Made by a program: the position numbers and the translations under genes. The notes beneath the pieces were generated by a model. It was given only the letters and a program-made list of their open reading frames with translations, was not told where the DNA came from and made no database searches. From assembly GCA_021847795.1 (NCBI GenBank), contig JAJZPZ010000017.1, positions 1 to 34,302 on the forward strand: DNA of 34,302 bases, read 5' to 3'. The first letter of the stretch is position 1, and every line of letters starts with the position of its first letter. The stretch is from Nitrospirota bacterium. GTDB taxonomy: Bacteria > Nitrospirota > Thermodesulfovibrionia > Thermodesulfovibrionales > Dissulfurispiraceae. Below, in pieces: positions 8,725 to 20,075 of the stretch.

Positions 8725-9051
8725 CTATCTGCTCTTTACTACTGCCCCTACCCGCGCCACCCTGCTGAACTGTGCCGAATCTATGAGTGTCCCTGCCAGC
8801 CTGCCCAGTAATGATGCGCTGGTAACAAAGATGGTCCCTGATATCATTATTCCGAGTACCATGGATGCGCCTACAATGAGTCTCGGCAGAAGGGTTGCAG
8901 ATACCGGGGTGCCTGCAATGCTCCCTGCTATATTCAGGCCTATGAGTCCACCGATGAACGAACCGGGAAGAAGTCCTGCCACTGCAAAGGCTGCCAGCCC
9001 AACGCCTGCTCCGATGTATAATCCCTTTTTTGCATTTTCATTTGTTTTCAT
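8725..9051 (-). CDS. Small integral membrane protein, paralogue of the gene at 8338-8670
   Basis: 108 aa from the ATG at 9051 (MKTNENAKKG), chosen for GGGAGG seven bases upstream; the frame is open back to 9213 but without a site. It has a Lys-rich start, a hydrophobic segment GVGLAAFAVAGLLPGSFIGG, then a second pair of helices with MVLGIMISGTIFV and a short basic tail. It shares its GLLPG/GLIPG motif and helix order with the next gene 54 bases downstream, so both are likely co-transcribed and may form a hetero-oligomer. I do not recognise the family. Confidence 0.75.
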   Translation of the reverse strand: MKTNENAKKGLYIGAGVGLAAFAVAGLLPGSFIGGLIGLNIAGSIAGTPVSATLLPRLIVGASMVLGIMISGTIFVTSASLLGRLAGTLIDSAQFSRVARVGAVVKSR

Positions 9052-9260
9052 TTTCTTTTCCTCCCTTTTGTTTTCTTGCTTCTTATATTGCAGATTCCGT
9101 GCCAATTCTAAACACATTGAAAAACAAGAGAATAGATGAGCAGGGTTTTTGCATCTTTGCGAAACAGGCCGGGGCGGCATTGCAAAGCTGCGAACAGAAG
9201 AGATAGAATGCAAAGGTTGCGTATTTGCTTATGCTGAGGACATAATAAAAGATACGTTAA

Positions 9261-9785
9261 ATGGTTCGTGTAAAGAAATTCATCAAGAAAATATTCACCG
9301 GAAGCAAAGAAGCAGGACCGCTTGTTGCAGGGCTCCTCGGTCAGTTGCCGGAAGACTACATGGTCTTCAGCGGCATCCTTTACAACCACAGTGAGATCGA
9401 CCACGTTGTATTCAACAGGCAGCACGGGTTGTTTATTATTAATATTGCAGCCGGAAAGGGTGAGGTCACCTATGACGGGGCCCAACTGCTTATCAACAGG
9501 AAGCCTCGGTCTGAAGTGATCAAGAAGACCCTCAAAGATACCTTCTGGCTGAAATCAACGATACGGGAGCGCATGGGACTAGATGTGCTGGTAACGCCTA
9601 TCGTGGTTTTTGAGAACGCAAAGGTGAAGGTCAGCGGTCCCATAATCGGGGTGACTGTCGTGGAAAGCGGGCGCCTCATGGACACGGTTGCACAAACTCC
9701 TGAGAAAAGTCATCTTGAGGACGGCGTGGTAATGGTGCTGCGGGAACTGCACGGCATCCACACGATCAACTACAGGAGCATGTAG
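9261..9785 (+). CDS. NERD-like domain protein with lost catalytic residues
   Basis: 174 aa; ATG at 9261 with a poor ribosome site. Residues 15-110 follow the nuclease-related (NERD) pattern: GPLVAGLLGQLPEDY, then a strand and EIDHVVFNRQHGLFIINIA, then a GKGEVTYDG turn. In active PD-(D/E)xK members the strand after the Gly reads I-E-x-K; here it is I-N-I-A, so the Glu and Lys are absent while the Asp of EIDH is kept. The carboxyl end adds strands with PIVVFENAKVKV, as in NERD proteins. It probably binds nucleic acid or another ligand without cutting. It stands alone between a small membrane gene pair and a convergent permease. Confidence 0.7.
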   Translation: MVRVKKFIKKIFTGSKEAGPLVAGLLGQLPEDYMVFSGILYNHSEIDHVVFNRQHGLFIINIAAGKGEVTYDGAQLLINRKPRSEVIKKTLKDTFWLKSTIRERMGLDVLVTPIVVFENAKVKVSGPIIGVTVVESGRLMDTVAQTPEKSHLEDGVVMVLRELHGIHTINYRSM

Positions 9786-9796
9786 GTCCCCTCTCA

Positions 9797-10873
9797 TTAC
9801 CTGCCCAGGAAATCCCCGATCGGGGCAAGGGACTGAATGCGGTCGCACAATATCTTGAACACCGTAAGGAGCGGCACTGCAATCAGCGCGCCGGTGATGC
9901 CCCATATCCAGCCCCAGAAGATGAGCCACACAAAAATCGCCACCGGGTTCAGGGCAAAACGTGCGCCGAGCACAAAGGGCGTGATGATCTGCCCCTGCAG
10001 CGTGTCTATGGCGAGATAGAGTCCCGGCGCCAGCAGGATCTTCCCCATGCTGTTAAAGGACAGGAGCGCTACGACTGCCACGACAATTACCCCGAGCAGC
10101 GGCCCGATATAGGGAATAAAAACCAGGAACCCGGCCATAACTCCCCAGAGCACCGGGTTGGGCATACCGACAAAATACATCACGAGGCTGATTACTGCCC
10201 CTTCAATGATGTTGATAAACGTCACTGTCAGAAGATAGCGCGATACACTGGTCTCTATCTCTTGTGCGATATCGACCACCTCTTTTTTTTCGTGGAAACC
10301 CGGGAAAAGATTTGTGAGCTTGTGGACAAATAAATCCCCTGAGGCAAGAAGGAAAAAAAGGAGAAAGACCATTACCGCTCCCTTTGCAACGAACTCCTGC
10401 ATGCCTGAAAAAAAGGCATCGGAGAGGCTCGGACGGCTTTTCACTTCGACCTTCGGCTTCTCTTTCTCCCCTGCTCCGGTTATCTTATGCAATTCCTCGG
10501 CGGTTTCCGCCACTTTCTGCACCGGGAGGACGATGCTCCGCACCTTTTCCTCTACGGCGCGGAAGTTTTGGGGAGCGCTGTCGATCCATGCAATGGCAGG
10601 ACCGGTAAGCTGCTCTGTTCCGTATGCTGCAGCCCCGATGAGGATGGCGAGCACAAGTGCGGCGCCTGCCACTTCAGGAATCCTGATTCTCTTTAATGTG
10701 CGCACTACCGGTCTCAGGAGAAAGGCAAAGAGCACCGCAAGGGTTACCGGCAGCAGAAAGGCCCGGGCAAAATATAGAGTATAAAAAGAGGCGAGAATAA
10801 AAAGCCCTTTGATTGCCCGGAACATATGGGAGACATCTCCGGCTCTGTTTTTTGCTTGAGGCTCTTCGTCCAA
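9797..10873 (-). CDS. AI-2E family (PerM/UPF0118) membrane permease
   Basis: 358 aa with a TTG start at 10873 and AGGGAG six bases upstream; an ATG at 10825 is the alternative. About eight membrane helices are visible: two near the amino end around a FAFLLRPVVRTLKRIRIP loop, a long soluble segment (about 85-150), then PNPVLWGVMAGFLVFIPYIGPLLG, the conserved core of the family, and a final ALIAVPLLTVFKI helix. Members are described as exporters of small molecules, including autoinducer-2 and Na+ or H+ antiport in some cases; the substrate here is unknown. It converges with the NERD-like gene, 11 bases apart. Confidence 0.9.
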   Translation of the reverse strand: MDEEPQAKNRAGDVSHMFRAIKGLFILASFYTLYFARAFLLPVTLAVLFAFLLRPVVRTLKRIRIPEVAGAALVLAILIGAAAYGTEQLTGPAIAWIDSAPQNFRAVEEKVRSIVLPVQKVAETAEELHKITGAGEKEKPKVEVKSRPSLSDAFFSGMQEFVAKGAVMVFLLFFLLASGDLFVHKLTNLFPGFHEKKEVVDIAQEIETSVSRYLLTVTFINIIEGAVISLVMYFVGMPNPVLWGVMAGFLVFIPYIGPLLGVIVVAVVALLSFNSMGKILLAPGLYLAIDTLQGQIITPFVLGARFALNPVAIFVWLIFWGWIWGITGALIAVPLLTVFKILCDRIQSLAPIGDFLGR

Positions 10874-10967
10874 GGCTTGCTCCCTGCGCGCAGTGGTGTT
10901 GAGACGGAAGTTGCTCTTATCTCAAACTATAAAGGGAAAATTGCAGGGGGTCAAGCAGGGCTTTGTT

Positions 10968-11300
10968 CTAGATCTTGTCGAATACCGCCTTGGATATTTT
11001 GATAAAGCATACCCCTTCAGGCATTTTACAGTTGCCGGCCTTTTTCTGTCCCACGGCATCTTTCGGCATCCTGATGGTGGCCAGCTTGCTCCGCGCCTCG
11101 TTCAGCAGGCGCAGTATATCGGCAGGAAGGGCTTTTATCTCATCTGCCCGGCTGCATTCAAGCTCTGCAAGGCCTTCCTGCGTCCGCGCCGTTGTATTTG
11201 CAAAGGCCTTGCAGGCGCTGCACAAAGTGTCCGCCTGCTTGCCTTCGAGCACAGAGGAGACATAATGATAATATCGTATATGATTAATGAGCTTTGCCAT
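10968..11300 (-). CDS. Small four-cysteine protein, unknown
   Basis: 110 aa from the ATG at 11300, six bases after GGAGG; longer frames exist back to 11372. The sequence opens with an aromatic helix (MAKLINHIRYYHYVSSVLEG), then CSAC, a helix running to a Cys near residue 60, a basic ATIRMPKDAVGQKK segment and KMPEGVCFIKI. The spacing of cysteines could allow a redox or metal site. No signal peptide is seen. I do not recognise it. It precedes the AI-2E permease on the same strand by 94 bases. Confidence 0.6.
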   Translation of the reverse strand: MAKLINHIRYYHYVSSVLEGKQADTLCSACKAFANTTARTQEGLAELECSRADEIKALPADILRLLNEARSKLATIRMPKDAVGQKKAGNCKMPEGVCFIKISKAVFDKI

Positions 11301-11515
11301 GAAAACCTCCATCTCATATCTTAAGGAAGTAAGGCTGTTCTTTTCAAGCTGAACACTGCGGTTCCCGTTCAATAAGCCTGGTATGAAATACTTTTAAAGG
11401 GATCGCCGTAAAGCCTTTGGGGCAAACTGAGACACTACCTTTCCTGGAGAGGTGTTGACAGGAGATAGTCTGAGTACATAAAATGATACCCACTTTTCTT
11501 TTTTGCGAGGCGGGC

Positions 11516-11746
11516 ATGCTCAAAGACAATGAACGGATATGTGATATTTGCGGGGGCGGGATTGCGGAAGGTACGCAATCCCGTGTTGCCCACATTTCTC
11601 CGGAGGCGGCAGCTGTGCTCCGTGATGCGGAAGGCGGGGACCTCACTCCGATATGGGAGCAAAACCCTGACGGGACCGTGCGCTTTGATATTTGCCGGCA
11701 ATGCGTGGTGTGCATGGGGGGGCTGAATACACAAAAAAACAACTAA
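11516..11746 (+). CDS. Small zinc-ribbon-like protein, unknown
   Basis: 76 aa from the ATG at 11516, six bases after a GAGG; an in-frame ATG at 11483 is possible. Two CxxC knuckles (CDICGG near residue 9 and CRQCVVC near residue 62) flank a central helix and acidic turn, the arrangement of a zinc ribbon. Codon use resembles the neighbours. Function is unknown; such proteins often bind nucleic acid or act as adaptors. Confidence 0.6.
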   Translation: MLKDNERICDICGGGIAEGTQSRVAHISPEAAAVLRDAEGGDLTPIWEQNPDGTVRFDICRQCVVCMGGLNTQKNN

Positions 11747-14227: not shown

Positions 14228-15133
14228 TCAAATGTATTTAAGCCGGCGCTGCGGTTTTTCAAGGGAGTAAGCCATCTGGAAAATCCCCTCCCAGGGGTCG
14301 CCCTTGTCGTTCAGCATGCCGAAAATATTTCTGATAGTGTATTCTTTTGCACTCAGGCGCCTGTCTTTCAGGTCGCTCCACTCCAGCGGGGCAGCAACCG
14401 GAGCGCCTGGTTTCGGCCGGACAGCATAAGGCGCTACAGTTGTCTGCCCGTAAATGTTCCTGCGGACATCAACAAACATGCGCCCCTCCCGTTCCTCTTT
14501 GATGAATTCATTCGTGAAGAAATCGGGCTCGAGGCGTATCAGGATGTCCGCCATGTTCTGCGCGAATTTATTCACCGTGGGGAAATCCGCTTCCCGGTTC
14601 AGGGGAACAACCACATGGAGCCCGCGCGAGCCTGTTGTCATGGCAAACGATGCAAGGCCGACTTCATGCAGGAATTCTTTCAGGATTAATGCCGCATACC
14701 GCACGGGCTCGAATTCATCATCAGGAGGGTCCAGATCAAAAATCAATCTGTCGGGGTATTCCGGTTTGTCTGCTTTGCCGGGCCATACGTGAAGGATGCA
14801 TACCTGGTTGGCAAGGTAGATGAGGGTTTCCTTGTCTTCGCAGGTAATCTGTGTAATGCTGCCGCCTTCTTTCAACGCAACAGTCACCCTGTTTATCCAT
14901 TGGGGAAAGTAATCAGGCGCCTGCTTCTGGTAAAATTTCCCGTCGTTGATGCCGTTGGGAAATCTCTCCAGGACGATCATCCGGCCCCGTATATGTGGAA
15001 GCAAGGTATCGGCTATGCGCTCGTAATATTCCACGAATTCTTTTTTTGTAATGCCTTCATCGGGAAAGAGGACCTTCTCCAGATTGGAAAGCTCCACCCT
15101 GTGCAGATCAACCTGTATGCTTTCTCGTGCCAT
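14228..15133 (-). CDS. Stand-alone LigD-type polymerase domain (archaeo-eukaryotic primase fold)
   Basis: 301 aa from the ATG at 15133 (MARESIQV); an ATG at 15151 adds six residues and neither has a good ribosome site. The sequence matches the polymerase module of bacterial NHEJ protein LigD: FPDEGITKKEFVEYYERIA, then RFPNGINDGKFYQK, the metal-binding DLDPP, then TTGSRGLHVVVPL and DVRRNIYGQTTVAPYAVRPK with GAPVAAPLEW. All catalytic acids and the SRGLH motif are present. LigD polymerases fill gaps with ribonucleotides at double-strand breaks. Here there is no ligase or phosphoesterase domain and no ku gene in the window, so partners must be elsewhere. Confidence 0.92.
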   Translation of the reverse strand: MARESIQVDLHRVELSNLEKVLFPDEGITKKEFVEYYERIADTLLPHIRGRMIVLERFPNGINDGKFYQKQAPDYFPQWINRVTVALKEGGSITQITCEDKETLIYLANQVCILHVWPGKADKPEYPDRLIFDLDPPDDEFEPVRYAALILKEFLHEVGLASFAMTTGSRGLHVVVPLNREADFPTVNKFAQNMADILIRLEPDFFTNEFIKEEREGRMFVDVRRNIYGQTTVAPYAVRPKPGAPVAAPLEWSDLKDRRLSAKEYTIRNIFGMLNDKGDPWEGIFQMAYSLEKPQRRLKYI

Positions 15134-15178
15134 ACTAAAGTGTATCAGCATCCCGGCGTGCTATCAACAATAAAGACC

Positions 15179-15954: not shown

Positions 15955-17943
15955 TTATGGGAATTCAATTGCAAGTTCTCTTTGCCCCTTTTCAGGACAG
16001 TGTAAGGCAAATGCTTTAAGTCTCAGGTATTTCAGCCTTTCCTTTTTATTAAACGATTTTGAACGGGCATCAAGGATCTTTATTTGGTCTCTTGTTTTTC
16101 CTGATAGATCGTAATATTGCTTATATCTCCGGGCATCAACCCGTATTGAAAAATCTCCGGGCATGCTCCACTTATCGCTCAACTGAACCCAGGGAGCAAA
16201 ATCCGCCAATTTGGATCCGGGCCATAATTCTATCTTTGATTTTGCCCGTAGTTGTTGAATGCGCAGGCCCTTATCATCTGCAACTATCGTGTACCCTCCG
16301 TCAAAGGGGTCTGCGCCCCCTTTATCGAGGAACTCCCACTCGGCAAAGGACCGCTGCACTGATGAATTATGGCAGGAGGGGCAGTCTCTTGCCTTTCCAT
16401 ATGGATGCGATGCTTGCTCGATCTCAAGCCATAGCAGGTGATTGTTATTAAGTGAATTGAACGAACCGCCGTTTCCCCTTAACCTGAAAGTACCCATCAC
16501 ATAATAAGCATCCCTGGTCTCACCATTCTTCCATCTGAACTGCATCCTACCCGATGGCGGCACATCCGCCTTGACATTACCCAGGCTGTGCGGCCATATC
16601 TTCACCGGCATCCAGATTCCCCGGGAATCTTTTATCAGCACAGGCGGTGACTGTACCCCATAATACAGGTATTTATGAAAAGGGGTTTCTTTTTCAGCTA
16701 CTGAGCCGGGGCCCCACACGGTCATTTGATATCCCCTCAGCTCACTGACGTGGCAGGCAGCGCAATCCAATTTCCTATGGACGCCGCTGGAGTGCGCCTC
16801 CTCGATTTCCAAATGACAGTCCTGGCAGGTAGCTTTCCTCTCTATATGTCCCATGCCGCCTTCTGCCATGAGGTGACATTTAACACATTCAAAGCCTTTT
16901 TTATAATGGATATCGGAAGGCATGCCTTGCGGTACGGAATAATCTCCGCCGATATAGGTTTCCCCCCTGCGACTGTGCATAGCGCCTGAATGGCAGACTG
17001 TATTGCCGCGCCCATATCCCAAACAGTTCTCTGCGGCAGGGGTCTTTGTAAACGAATGGGCGCCTTCAGCAAGAGAAGGGCCAGGCAGCCTCCGGGATGA
17101 TAATGGTTTATTCTTTTCTGAAGCTTTTGGGGAATAGTGACAGTCAAGACATCCTGCATGACACACATTGCAGAATTTCTGTTTCTCCCTTGCCTGCTCA
17201 TTACTGAAGGGTATGTTCATTTCTTTCCGGATTGCTGCTGTATTGGAATAGTCAAAGAGGGCTTTATTCTGAATTTCCGGGGGAAGCTGATCTGCAAAAG
17301 ACGGTCCGCAATTATGAGGTCCGTACGGAGCGAGCCATGTCCTCATGGTACGCTGTCTATAATTACGCCCCATAACGGAGGTTTTGAATTGTTTCAACTC
17401 ATCGGGGTGGCACCCGCTTTTTCCGCAGGTTTTTCCAACAATCCCAGGATCAAAGTCAAAAGTACCCGGATCTCGGTCCTGCCAGAGAATGTTTCTTACG
17501 GGGAGGGGGACCCATTCCCCATTTCTATATTGCTTCGGCAGAAGCGCAAACAGGCGATCATCTCCCGTATCGCTTATCCCGTAAGGATAACCAAGCTCCC
17601 GCTTCAGGAGCTTTCCATCCTTTGATACGATCAACATCTTAAGCATTCCTTTATGGGCATCTTCCTTATCTTGTGCCCTGCCGTTCCCAAGGTGGCAATC
17701 CCTGCATTCGACATGCGCATGCCGGCTCTCTTTCCGGGCCGTTTCATTCGTCACATAAGCCCAGGGCGCCTTAAGCTTTTTCATCTTTTTTACATCAGCG
17801 TGGCAGTTGACACAACCGGCGGAAGTATTCATCCAGGCTTTATAGCCGGAGGGAATGAGCAGGCAGAGGAATATTATCAACCCGGCAACGAGCGTGTTGA
17901 ATGTAAGGATTTCACTGAGGGCGCCGATACGCGGGGCTTTCAT
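15955..17943 (-). CDS. Membrane-anchored multihaem cytochrome c of a b6-type complex
   Basis: 662 aa; ATG at 17943. One membrane helix at about residues 12-32 anchors a large periplasmic domain. Eight standard CXXCH haem sites start at residues 44, 80, 258, 265, 353, 373, 394 and 521. Two unusual sites, CGKSGCH (173-179, CX4CH) and a Cys307 with CH at 317-318 (CX9CH), could bring the total to ten. The carboxyl 130 residues after the last haem are haem-free. It ends the operon of subunit IV, Rieske and b6-like genes, so it should receive electrons from the Rieske protein in place of cytochrome f or c1, then pass them to periplasmic carriers or reductases. The gap to the previous gene is 10 bases. 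Confidence is high for a multihaem c, moderate for its exact partner. Confidence 0.9.
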   Translation of the reverse strand: MKAPRIGALSEILTFNTLVAGLIIFLCLLIPSGYKAWMNTSAGCVNCHADVKKMKKLKAPWAYVTNETARKESRHAHVECRDCHLGNGRAQDKEDAHKGMLKMLIVSKDGKLLKRELGYPYGISDTGDDRLFALLPKQYRNGEWVPLPVRNILWQDRDPGTFDFDPGIVGKTCGKSGCHPDELKQFKTSVMGRNYRQRTMRTWLAPYGPHNCGPSFADQLPPEIQNKALFDYSNTAAIRKEMNIPFSNEQAREKQKFCNVCHAGCLDCHYSPKASEKNKPLSSRRLPGPSLAEGAHSFTKTPAAENCLGYGRGNTVCHSGAMHSRRGETYIGGDYSVPQGMPSDIHYKKGFECVKCHLMAEGGMGHIERKATCQDCHLEIEEAHSSGVHRKLDCAACHVSELRGYQMTVWGPGSVAEKETPFHKYLYYGVQSPPVLIKDSRGIWMPVKIWPHSLGNVKADVPPSGRMQFRWKNGETRDAYYVMGTFRLRGNGGSFNSLNNNHLLWLEIEQASHPYGKARDCPSCHNSSVQRSFAEWEFLDKGGADPFDGGYTIVADDKGLRIQQLRAKSKIELWPGSKLADFAPWVQLSDKWSMPGDFSIRVDARRYKQYYDLSGKTRDQIKILDARSKSFNKKERLKYLRLKAFALHCPEKGQRELAIEFP

Positions 17944-17953
17944 AATGTTACTG

Positions 17954-18601
17954 CTACAATCCTCCCGAAATTCCCTGTTTTCTTATCATATGGAAATGGG
18001 CCCACAGCAAGAGATTCATCAACAATGGAAACCATATCACATGGAGGCTGTAAAATCTTACCAGCGTAAAGCCGGTAACTTCAGGGCCTCCACGAACCAA
18101 AAGCAAAAGAGAGTTTCCTATCAAAGGTATTGTAGCAATCATGTTCGTCCCTACGACAGTTGCCCAATAGGCTTTCTGGTCCCACGGTAAGAGGTACCCG
18201 GTAAAGCCGGAAGCAAATGAAAGCACTAAGGTAAAGGCGCCGGCAATCCAGTTAAGCTCCCGGGGAGGGCGGTAGGCTTTATTTGCGAATACCCTTAACG
18301 TATGCAGCAGTATGGAAAGCATTAATAGATTAGCCGTCCATTTATGTATGGCCCTTATCAGCAATCCCAGATTCGCTACTCTCATTATTCTTACCACACT
18401 TTGAAAGGCCTCTTTTTCCGAAGGTATGTAATAGGAACTTAAAAGCATCCCCGATATCAGCAGAGTGCAATAGAAGATAAAAGCCATCCCTCCAAGGCAG
18501 TAGGAATAGTTCACATTGCCGGGTATGGTTCTTTTTAATAGCCCCTTGTGAGATTCTTTTATTCCGAAGCGGCTGTAAATCCAGTCAAATGCTTTTCCCA
18601 T
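17954..18601 (-). CDS. petB: Cytochrome b6-like subunit of a quinol:cytochrome c reductase
   Basis: 215 aa; ATG at 18601. Four membrane helices. The haem-b ligands are His86 and His187, and His100 and His202, the same numbers and the same 15-residue spacing in the second pair as in plastid cytochrome b6, and the SLPWDQ segment appears as LLPWDQKAYWA. Cys35 sits in YCLGG, the position that covalently binds haem ci in b6f-type complexes. The ending MIRKQGISGGL also matches b6. It oxidises menaquinol or ubiquinol at the outer face and passes electrons across the membrane. The four genes lie 1, 7 and 10 bases apart. Confidence 0.93.
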   Translation of the reverse strand: MGKAFDWIYSRFGIKESHKGLLKRTIPGNVNYSYCLGGMAFIFYCTLLISGMLLSSYYIPSEKEAFQSVVRIMRVANLGLLIRAIHKWTANLLMLSILLHTLRVFANKAYRPPRELNWIAGAFTLVLSFASGFTGYLLPWDQKAYWATVVGTNMIATIPLIGNSLLLLVRGGPEVTGFTLVRFYSLHVIWFPLLMNLLLWAHFHMIRKQGISGGL

Positions 18602-18608
18602 GCTCCTA

Positions 18609-19073
18609 TCAAACCTTCAAGCCTAAATATACTTTCCCGTTCCGTATCTTCATAGGAATCCTCTCAAGGGGGAAGGCAGGAGGCCCTGCAATTATCCGGC
18701 CTTCAATATCATACTTTCCCCCATGACATGGACAAGCAAACATATTGTTATTCCTCGACCATTCCACGAGGCACCCTAAATGGCTGCATACTGATGACAG
18801 GGCGAAAATCTTGCCACCGTTATTTATGAGAAATGCCCTGAAACTTCCTGCTTTTTGATTGCTCTCATAAGCCAACTCAATCCGTTTCACTCCCCTCCTT
18901 GGCAGATCCTCTTCCTTTATTGCATAAAAGAATTTCAGTTCCCTCTTCCTTATTTCCGAAGGGTAGAGAAATACCAAAGAAATAATTCCTGAGATAAAGG
19001 CCAGGAATATAAGGCCGATTTTGATGAAAGTCTTTAAGAAAGTCCTTCTGTTCTGCTGATCAGGGGTAGCCAT
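18609..19073 (-). CDS. petC: Rieske iron-sulphur protein
   Basis: 154 aa; ATG at 19073. The amino end has NRRTFLK, a twin-arginine-like segment, and a membrane helix at about 17-36. The 2Fe-2S ligands are Cys96 and His98 (CSHLGC) and Cys114 and His117 (CPCHGG), with Cys101 and Cys116 for the disulphide. A GPP loop follows at 130-132 (AGPPAFPL). It takes electrons from the quinol at the outer face of the b6-like subunit and passes them to the multihaem cytochrome. Start codon lies one base after the subunit IV stop, which implies coupled translation. Confidence 0.95.
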   Translation of the reverse strand: MATPDQQNRRTFLKTFIKIGLIFLAFISGIISLVFLYPSEIRKRELKFFYAIKEEDLPRRGVKRIELAYESNQKAGSFRAFLINNGGKIFALSSVCSHLGCLVEWSRNNNMFACPCHGGKYDIEGRIIAGPPAFPLERIPMKIRNGKVYLGLKV

Positions 19074-19074
19074 T

Positions 19075-19461
19075 CTATATTCTTATCAGCGGGAATAGAG
19101 TCAAAACCAGGAAACTTCCAAAAAGGAGGGCAAAGGCCGCGATCGCCATATTTCTGGAGACCTTAGTTCCATGATCGATAAAAGGAATTGACAATAGAAG
19201 CGCTAAAGAAGATAGAGGCACTATGATATTTCCAATAAAAGCCCACTGCCCGGAGAAATACCTTACCAATTGGTACAGCCACAGAAAATACCATTCCGGC
19301 GCCGGTTGATAGGCTGAGAAGAAACTAATCTCTCTGCCAAGAGGAGGGGGAAAGAGCAAAGAAAGGAGGACAACAAGCCCTAAGGAGAAAAAAATCACTA
19401 TGAGGATTTCACTCATGTAATCAGGGTATAATCTCTTATCTCCTCTATCCCCTGATTCCAT
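19075..19461 (-). CDS. petD: Subunit IV-like C-terminal cytochrome b domain
   Basis: 128 aa; ATG at 19461, with a weak ribosome site; an internal ATG at 19416 is possible. Three membrane helices match the carboxyl part of cytochrome b. The quinol-oxidation-site motif PEWYF is in QPAPEWYFLWLYQLVR, and the preceding FPPPLG stretch is also typical of subunit IV. Its separation from the b6-like half, as in cyanobacteria, Firmicutes and heliobacteria, is a mark of the b6f type. It opens the operon; upstream lies a 233-base gap with a perfect hairpin but no clear promoter. Confidence 0.9.
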   Translation of the reverse strand: MESGDRGDKRLYPDYMSEILIVIFFSLGLVVLLSLLFPPPLGREISFFSAYQPAPEWYFLWLYQLVRYFSGQWAFIGNIIVPLSSLALLLSIPFIDHGTKVSRNMAIAAFALLFGSFLVLTLFPLIRI

Positions 19462-19694: not shown

Positions 19695-19979
19695 TCAGCA
19701 CCCCTCTATTACCCTAACATCAGTGGCGACATTTTTATTGTCTTTTACTTCGTATTTGATCTTTATCTCATCGCCTGTACTGTATTTCTTGAGTTTTGCT
19801 TTATTTTCAACTGTGATTGTTATGTCTTTGCCGCTTTTTTTATCAGTAACGACAATAGCGCCTTTGCCCGAGTCTATACTCTTAACGGTCCCTTCGATTT
19901 TTTCCGCCGCAATTGCACTCGCAATTATCGCTAAACAGAAAATCACCGCTAACATAATTATTGCAACCCTCTTCTTCAT
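19695..19979 (-). CDS. Small exported protein, unknown
   Basis: 94 aa from the ATG at 19979, with GGAGG eight bases upstream. Residues 1-24 form a classic signal peptide (MKKRVAIIMLAVIFCLAIIA, cleavage after AIAA). The mature 70 residues are lysine-rich beta strands (GTVKSIDSGKGAIVVTDKKS, then ITITVENKAKLKKYS and IKIKYEV), which look like a small beta-barrel of OB type. It has its own strong promoter and is divergent from the porin. Function unknown; a periplasmic binding or stress role is conceivable. Confidence 0.8.
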   Translation of the reverse strand: MKKRVAIIMLAVIFCLAIIASAIAAEKIEGTVKSIDSGKGAIVVTDKKSGKDITITVENKAKLKKYSTGDEIKIKYEVKDNKNVATDVRVIEGC

Positions 19980-20075
19980 ACCCTTGTCCTCCTTCATTCT
20001 TTCAGATTTATTTTGGGGCGTAATTTATATTACGACCTTCGGCAACCCTTTATCCAGTAGTTTAGAATCTGTTAA

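What the first reader, a model, noticed from the sequence alone, without database searches (positions are those of the whole stretch)
17954..19461. b6f-type core with haem ci cysteine, outside phototrophs
Cys35, His86, His100, His187 and His202 all keep b6 numbering, and the C-terminal half is a separate PEWYF subunit. So the complex is b6f-like, probably with haem ci, in an apparently non-phototrophic organism and with a multihaem exit. The gene order (subunit IV, Rieske, b6, multihaem c) differs from the cyanobacterial one and may mark an older or reorganised branch.
Basis: partly seen in the sequence, partly recalled or inferred. Interest (0 to 1): 0.7.

Follow-up and report, generated by a model that had tools for sequence, protein, structure and literature searches.

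The report
b6f-like complex with multihaem cytochrome partner

Summary
Window 19461-17954 (-) encodes subunit IV, a Rieske protein and a 215-aa b6 aligning ungapped with plant b6 (Cys35, His86/100/187/202), followed by a 662-aa multihaem c protein. The genome has no reaction-centre genes and only this one cytochrome b. But Cys35 occurs in every split b6-type homologue examined (Bacillota, Nitrospirota, Chloroflexota, Actinomycetota, archaea, cyanobacteria), so haem ci outside phototrophs is ordinary. Subunit IV has Glu18 where phototrophs have Phe40: the low-potential haem ci type. The order IV-Rieske-b6-multihaem is derived: one clade nested among Rieske-b6-IV operons, apparently moved between families. 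What is new is the partner. In 176 order genomes b6 and the cytochrome co-occur (77 both, 11 discordant) and co-evolve (r 0.82). It has nine canonical haem motifs, an invariant CX9CH, and an invariant non-haem Cys212; three orthologues have in-frame TGA exactly there plus an identical hairpin, and one of those genomes has tRNA-Sec. Some relatives carry the cassette beside ExtH/ExtI or YedE/rhodanese genes, as in Geobacter's selenite cluster. Best reading: a menaquinol-oxidising Q-cycle complex feeding a periplasmic multihaem cytochrome with a redox-active Cys/Sec. New variant of a known kind.

The parts
19075..19461 (-). subunit IV (PetD-like), 128 aa, three helices, PEWYF motif
   Evidence: PF00032, TIGR01156; model and Foldseek hits all PetD
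19408..19410 (-). codon of subunit IV Glu18, in the place of PetD Phe40 counted back from PEWY: candidate second axial ligand of haem ci
   Evidence: role of this position from PMC12954380
19288..19299 (-). PEWY motif of the quinol-oxidation site
   Evidence: invariant in alignment A4
18609..19073 (-). Rieske iron-sulfur protein, 154 aa, Tat-type N-terminus (NRRTFLK) and single anchor
   Evidence: PF00355
18711..18788 (-). Rieske cluster motif CSHLGC...CPCHGGKY; Gly in place of the potential-raising Ser
   Evidence: effect of the Ser from PMC12954380
17954..18601 (-). cytochrome b6, 215 aa, four helices
   Evidence: PF00033, PDB b6 hits; residues
18497..18499 (-). codon of Cys35, haem ci attachment residue
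15955..17943 (-). multihaem cytochrome c, 662 aa, N-terminal membrane anchor; 8 CxxCH, 1 CX4CH, 1 CX9CH
17308..17310 (-). codon (TGC) of Cys212; in-frame TGA at this codon in three orthologues
16990..17025 (-). CX9CH motif (C307 to H318), candidate site of a tenth haem
   Evidence: 36 of 36 orthologues, spacing always 9
19695..19997 (-). small exported ExtJ-like protein upstream of the operon
   Evidence: NF040942 31.9 bits, below the cut-off of 52.5; homologue beside the cassette in L189
20222..21802 (+). DUF3373 protein (putative outer-membrane porin), divergent from the operon
   Evidence: PF11853 E 7.7e-139; homologue beside the cassette in L189

Best explanation
The operon encodes a b6f-architecture menaquinol:cytochrome c oxidoreductase (four-helix b6, separate three-helix subunit IV, Rieske) in which cytochrome f is replaced by a membrane-anchored multihaem cytochrome. 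Inferred cycle: menaquinol is oxidised at the PEWY site; one electron goes through a low-potential Rieske centre into the multihaem protein, the other through haems bp, bn and a glutamate-ligated haem ci (Cys35 of b6, Glu18 of subunit IV) to menaquinone on the cytoplasmic side, conserving energy by a Q-cycle. The multihaem protein probably holds nine or ten haems and passes the electron to a periplasmic acceptor at or near its invariant Cys212 (Sec in some species), a redox-active site; sulfur or selenium compounds are the likeliest substrates. The gene order is a derived, mobile arrangement, not an ancient one. Shown: gene content, residues, phylogeny, co-occurrence, TGA/Cys exchange. Inferred: haem ci, direct contact of Rieske and cytochrome, Q-cycle, acceptor.
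For: b6 homology and residues. Glu at the Phe40 place in every Thermodesulfovibrionales subunit IV and Phe in every cyanobacterial one, the position reported as second ligand of low-potential haem ci (PMC12954380). CHGG Rieske throughout the order and in Bacillus. Only one cytochrome b in the genome. b6 and the multihaem gene: 77 genomes with both, 6 and 5 with one, 88 with neither, although they are usually at separate loci; distance correlation r 0.82, 0 of 2000 permutations; the joined arrangement is one clade in both trees. Cys212 in 39 of 42 orthologues and in 7 of 7 paralogues, TGA in the other 3, identical 13-nt hairpin 3' of the TGA only in those three, tRNA-Sec in one of the genomes. 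Cassette beside ExtH/ExtI above their cut-offs, or YedE-type transporter/rhodanese, in relatives. Precedent for a bc complex feeding periplasmic reductases: PMC6195509.
Against: No biochemistry. CCB1 and CCB2/4 haem-ci assembly factors are absent, though Bacillus subtilis, reported to have covalent haem on its b subunit (Yu and Le Brun 1998, listed in PMC12954380), lacks them too. Two nearly complete genomes (G017, G020) have b6 without the orthologous cytochrome. ExtI is not associated with b6 across the order (p 0.82). No fold could be obtained for the multihaem protein (pLDDT 32). The Glu/Phe40 register is by ungapped count from PEWY; the gapped alignment A4 shifts it by one or two residues.
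Confidence: 0.7

Rival explanations
1. The multihaem protein is only an electron wire or storage capacitor that hands electrons to other periplasmic reductases; Cys212/Sec is a structural residue or haem ligand, not a catalytic one.
For: Eight invariant and two near-invariant extra histidines could ligate all haems. Neighbouring reductase genes differ between lineages, for example a molybdopterin oxidoreductase set in L176, which suits a general donor.
Against: Cys/Sec exchange with a dedicated hairpin is typical of redox-active residues; the cytochrome is a fixed partner of b6.
Confidence: 0.3
2. The operon is a true Nitrospirota version of the Geobacter ext cluster, dedicated to selenite/tellurite reduction (ExtO, ExtP, ExtQ as Rieske, b6 and subunit IV).
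For: Two relatives have ExtH (317, 312 bits) and ExtI (483, 488 bits) immediately upstream of the cassette; own genome has ExtH and ExtI on another contig; ExtJ-like gene in the window.
Against: b6 scores 227 against the ExtP cut-off of 290, while a Bacillus b6 scores 300, so that model is not specific. The multihaem protein gets only 22 bits from ExtN. ExtI presence is independent of b6 across the order.
Confidence: 0.15
3. The gene order marks an early-branching or ancestral b6f lineage.
For: b6 alone does not reject a basal position within the order (AU p 0.197).
Against: The multihaem tree rejects it (p 0.0007); both trees place the clade as a nested group; outgroup Nitrospirota and most non-phototrophs have Rieske-b6-IV.
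Confidence: 0.04
4. The three TGA codons are sequencing errors, pseudogenes or true stops.
For: All come from metagenome-type genomes.
Against: Same codon as a Cys conserved in all other orthologues, three species in two genera, frame open for 640-650 codons, identical hairpin, tRNA-Sec in one genome.
Confidence: 0.04

Closest known systems
Bacillus/Bacillota menaquinol:cytochrome c reductase (QcrABC) and heliobacterial Rieske/cytb complex
   Same: split b6 with haem-ci Cys, CHGG low-potential Rieske (Bacillus), Rieske-b6 gene order ancestral to both
   Different: the high-potential exit is a multihaem cytochrome rather than a mono- or dihaem c; gene order here is IV-Rieske-b6
Kuenenia stuttgartiensis Rieske/cytb complexes Kuste4569-4574 and Kustd1480-1485 (PMC12954380)
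   Same: b6-like cytochrome, subunit IV, multihaem c in place of cytochrome f, modelled Glu-ligated haem cN
   Different: those have a five-helix subunit IV, an NAD(P) oxidoreductase subunit and high-potential Rieske with Ser; none of these is seen in this operon
Geobacter extHIJKLMNOPQS cluster (PMC5877670)
   Same: Rieske (ExtO), b cytochrome (ExtP), small membrane protein (ExtQ), multihaem c proteins, a Sec-containing cytochrome c (ExtKL); ExtH/ExtI/ExtJ-like genes adjoin the cassette in relatives
   Different: different multihaem proteins; b6 and IV below the ExtP/ExtQ cut-offs; ExtH/ExtI not beside the operon in this genome
Cyanobacterial/plant cytochrome b6f
   Same: b6 length, Cys35, His numbering, separate subunit IV, PEWY
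   Different: 41-42% identity, Glu for Phe40, no cytochrome f in the operon, no CCB assembly factors, different gene order

Membership tests
b6f-type Rieske/cytochrome b complex | four-helix cytochrome b with separate subunit IV | tested here: met
b6f-type Rieske/cytochrome b complex | four His ligands, 13 and 14 residues apart in helices B and D | tested here: met
b6f-type Rieske/cytochrome b complex | Rieske protein with C-x-H-x-G-C and C-x-C-H | tested here: met
b6f-type Rieske/cytochrome b complex | haem ci covalently bound to b6 | not testable with these tools
   Cys35 present; attachment needs biochemistry
b6f-type Rieske/cytochrome b complex | cytochrome f subunit | tested here: not met
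   no PetA-like gene in the operon; a multihaem c takes its place. Genome-wide search for PetA not done. Hence b6f-like, not a canonical b6f
cytochrome bc1 | b subunit as one chain of 7-8 helices, no haem-ci Cys | tested here: not met
   the long single-chain homologues form a different group
Geobacter ext cluster | ExtP-type b6 over NCBIfam cut-off | tested here: not met
   227 of 290 bits; model not specific
Geobacter ext cluster | ExtH and ExtI in the same cluster | tested here: inconclusive
   not in the window; present on contig C251 of the same genome and adjacent to the cassette in G299 and G233
bacterial selenoprotein (orthologues of the multihaem protein) | in-frame UGA at a conserved Cys, SECIS-like hairpin, tRNA-Sec in the genome | tested here: met
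   three species; tRNA-Sec found in G010, not searched in G025 and G029; the window's own protein has Cys

The most novel reading that the evidence does not exclude
The multihaem subunit is a terminal reductase with a Cys/Sec active site next to a haem on a non-canonical CX9CH motif, so that a b6f-type Q-cycle complex and its substrate reductase form one membrane unit that couples menaquinol oxidation directly to reduction of a sulfur or selenium compound.
Probability: 0.3. Interest if true: 0.78.

Novelty: new variant of a known kind. Interest (0 to 1): 0.52.

Why it matters
b6f-type complexes in anaerobes are common but hardly characterised, and what takes the electron after the Rieske centre is mostly unknown. 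Here a specific partner is identified by co-inheritance rather than by gene order alone, and it carries two testable oddities: a CX9CH motif and an invariant Cys that is exchanged for selenocysteine. If correct, it links Q-cycle energy conservation to a multihaem enzyme in a whole order of subsurface bacteria, and makes it possible to ask how haem ci is attached without the known CCB factors.

Tried and rejected
(1) Haem-ci Cys as a rarity: rejected, universal among split b6. (2) Ancient branch: rejected by the multihaem tree, not decided by b6 alone. (3) ExtP membership: below the cut-off, and the model also accepts Bacillus b6. (4) ExtI as an obligate partner: no association across the order. 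(6) Remote homology of the multihaem protein to solved structures: best E 0.04 to NrfH over two haem motifs, not meaningful. (7) I first read the ten conserved extra His as one distal ligand for each of ten haems; weakened, because H210 becomes Gln in 5 of 42 and H502 is Gln in 3. (9) Dibrova 2013 is not in the library. (10) No paper in the library describes a CX9CH haem motif; the single text hit is unrelated.

Full report
What is there. On the minus strand the window carries four tightly packed genes, transcribed in the order subunit IV (19461-19075, 128 aa), Rieske (19073-18609, 154 aa), cytochrome b6 (18601-17954, 215 aa) and a multihaem c protein (17943-15955, 662 aa), with 1 to 10 nt between them. 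Pfam and NCBIfam name the first three without ambiguity. Subunit IV folds as three helices and its ten best matches in the PDB are PetD chains. The genome has only one PF00033 cytochrome b and no Photo_RC or PsaA/PsaB, with Synechococcus elongatus as positive control.

Which organism. The record is unnamed, but contigs of genomes in the same family or order match in length named GenBank records of Thermodesulfovibrionales/Nitrospirota: G017:C3 and JAGUWD010000007.1 (361,868 bases), G010:C44 and JASEGS010000004.1 (80,842 bases), G013:C87 and JAJYVD010000002.1 (142,040 bases). So the host is an uncultured or unnamed member of Thermodesulfovibrionales.

Haem ci. Cys35 and the 13/14 spacing of the helix B and D histidines occur in every split, four-helix b6 homologue I collected: cyanobacteria, Bacillota, Chloroflexota, Actinomycetota, Zixibacteria/Coatesbacteria, Methanoperedens, Archaeoglobus and Nitrospirota; the long single-chain homologues lack the Cys. 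The trait is therefore that of the whole b6 branch and not a sign of phototrophy or of novelty. A further residue sharpens the prediction: 37 residues before PEWY, where PetD has Phe40, all Thermodesulfovibrionales subunit IV sequences, and the archaeal, one actinobacterial and two Bacillota ones, have Glu (Glu18 in the window), and all cyanobacteria have Phe; four Chloroflexota have Ala or Val and Zixibacteria/Coatesbacteria Gln. PMC12954380 reviews EPR evidence that Glu at this place is the second ligand of low-potential haem ci. The register is by ungapped count; the gapped alignment A4 shifts it by one or two residues. The Rieske motif is CPCHGG, Gly replacing the Ser that raises the potential, throughout the order and in Bacillus (effect of the Ser from PMC12954380). 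Together this suits a low-potential, menaquinol-oxidising Q-cycle. The CCB1 and CCB2/4 assembly families are absent, as they are from Bacillus subtilis in the control set, so the route of haem attachment is open.

Gene order. In other Thermodesulfovibrionales, outgroup Nitrospirota and most non-phototrophs the order is Rieske-b6-IV. IV-Rieske-b6-multihaem occurs in six genomes of the order: G000, G001, G007, G027 (across a contig break), G299 and G233. These form one clade in the b6 tree (support 94, without G027) and in the multihaem tree (93; 99 without G007), sister to or among family f7 sequences. A basal position is rejected by the multihaem data (AU p 0.0007) though not by b6 alone (p 0.197); vertical descent within family f1 is rejected (p 0.024). 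G027 carries the cassette version while its congeners G013 and G022, 94% identical to each other in b6, carry the family version at 71-72%. The arrangement is derived and apparently mobile.

The multihaem partner. Outside this clade the orthologous cytochrome is usually encoded elsewhere in the genome or convergently beside b6, yet it follows b6: 77 genomes have both, 6 only b6, 5 only the cytochrome, 88 neither (Fisher p 5e-36, not corrected for phylogeny, but presence varies within at least six families); pairwise distances correlate at r 0.82 with 0 of 2000 permutations as high. Multihaem genes also adjoin b6-type operons in other phyla, so a multihaem exit is a recurrent design, as known from Kuenenia (PMC12954380).

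Its anatomy. All 36 aligned orthologues share nine canonical motifs (eight CxxCH and a CX4CH) and a CX9CH (C307 to H318) of constant spacing; 35 of 36 have all nine canonical ones and the other is truncated at a contig end. Seven paralogues of 36-43% identity keep the motif, as CX8CH where I counted it. An invariant non-haem Cys212 lies in GPHNCGPSF. In G010, G025 and G029 the codon is TGA, the frame stays open for about 640 codons, and 13 identical nucleotides (CCTCCGTCGGAGG) form a hairpin with its GUC loop about 30 nt downstream; the Cys orthologues lack it. In about 800 kb of G010 that I scanned there is a tRNA-Sec. This is the pattern of selenocysteine insertion; the exchange marks Cys212 as probably redox-active. 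A Sec-containing cytochrome c, ExtKL, was predicted in Geobacter (PMC1914089, PMC5877670), but it has five haems; I could not compare the sequences.

Neighbourhood. In G299 and G233 the cassette directly follows genes over the NCBIfam cut-offs for ExtH (rhodanese) and ExtI (porin), preceded by a YedE-type transporter; in G001 it follows a rhodanese and a YedE-type gene; in G027 a DUF3373 porin, an ExtJ-like gene and a YedE-type gene. The window has the ExtJ-like gene and the DUF3373 gene; its genome has ExtH/ExtI on contig C251. Across the order ExtI is not associated with b6. I therefore read the neighbourhood as a hint to sulfur or selenium chemistry and not as proof of an ext function.

Mechanism and standing. 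Best supported: a Q-cycle menaquinol oxidoreductase with Glu-ligated haem ci that delivers electrons through the Rieske centre to a dedicated multihaem cytochrome with a redox-active Cys/Sec. Shown by computation: parts, residues, trees, co-inheritance, TGA/Cys exchange. Inferred: covalent haem ci, the tenth haem, direct Rieske-to-cytochrome transfer, the acceptor. A bc complex feeding periplasmic reductases has a precedent in Campylobacter (PMC6195509, abstract). The finding as given is largely ordinary; the partner cytochrome is what deserves a second look.

Noticed in passing
L221, L222, L223 (orthologues of window 15955-17943): In-frame TGA at the codon of the otherwise invariant Cys212 with an identical 13-nt hairpin: probable selenocysteine in a multihaem cytochrome.
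   Followed up: yes
window 16990-17025: CX9CH motif invariant in 36 orthologues, between two canonical haem motifs; possible tenth haem on a motif not described in the papers searched.
   Followed up: partly
G056:C30:45683-46942, G361:C94:21196-22296, G189:C47:1033-2127: ExtH-type rhodanese genes with one in-frame TGA each: possible selenoprotein forms of ExtH.
   Followed up: no
L213 (G000:C251) 8817-11695: The window's own genome has ExtH and ExtI on another contig, without cytochrome b nearby.
   Followed up: partly
L176 1511-5245 and L178 1-450: In two other families the Rieske-b6-IV and multihaem genes lie beside a Tat-exported protein; in L176 this is a molybdopterin oxidoreductase with an NrfD-type membrane subunit.
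   Followed up: partly
L224 to L229: Paralogues of the multihaem protein (36-43% identity) keep Cys212 and a CX8CH motif but have Met at the place of His75, recalling Met ligation in NrfH (from memory).
   Followed up: partly
window 14231-15151: Stand-alone LigD-type primase-polymerase gene next to the operon; no ligase domain in the same protein.
   Followed up: no
L189 3872-4978, L154 5897-7300, L156 3471-4868: YeeE/YedE-type sulfur/selenium transporter genes next to the cassette in several genomes, absent from the window's neighbourhood.
   Followed up: partly
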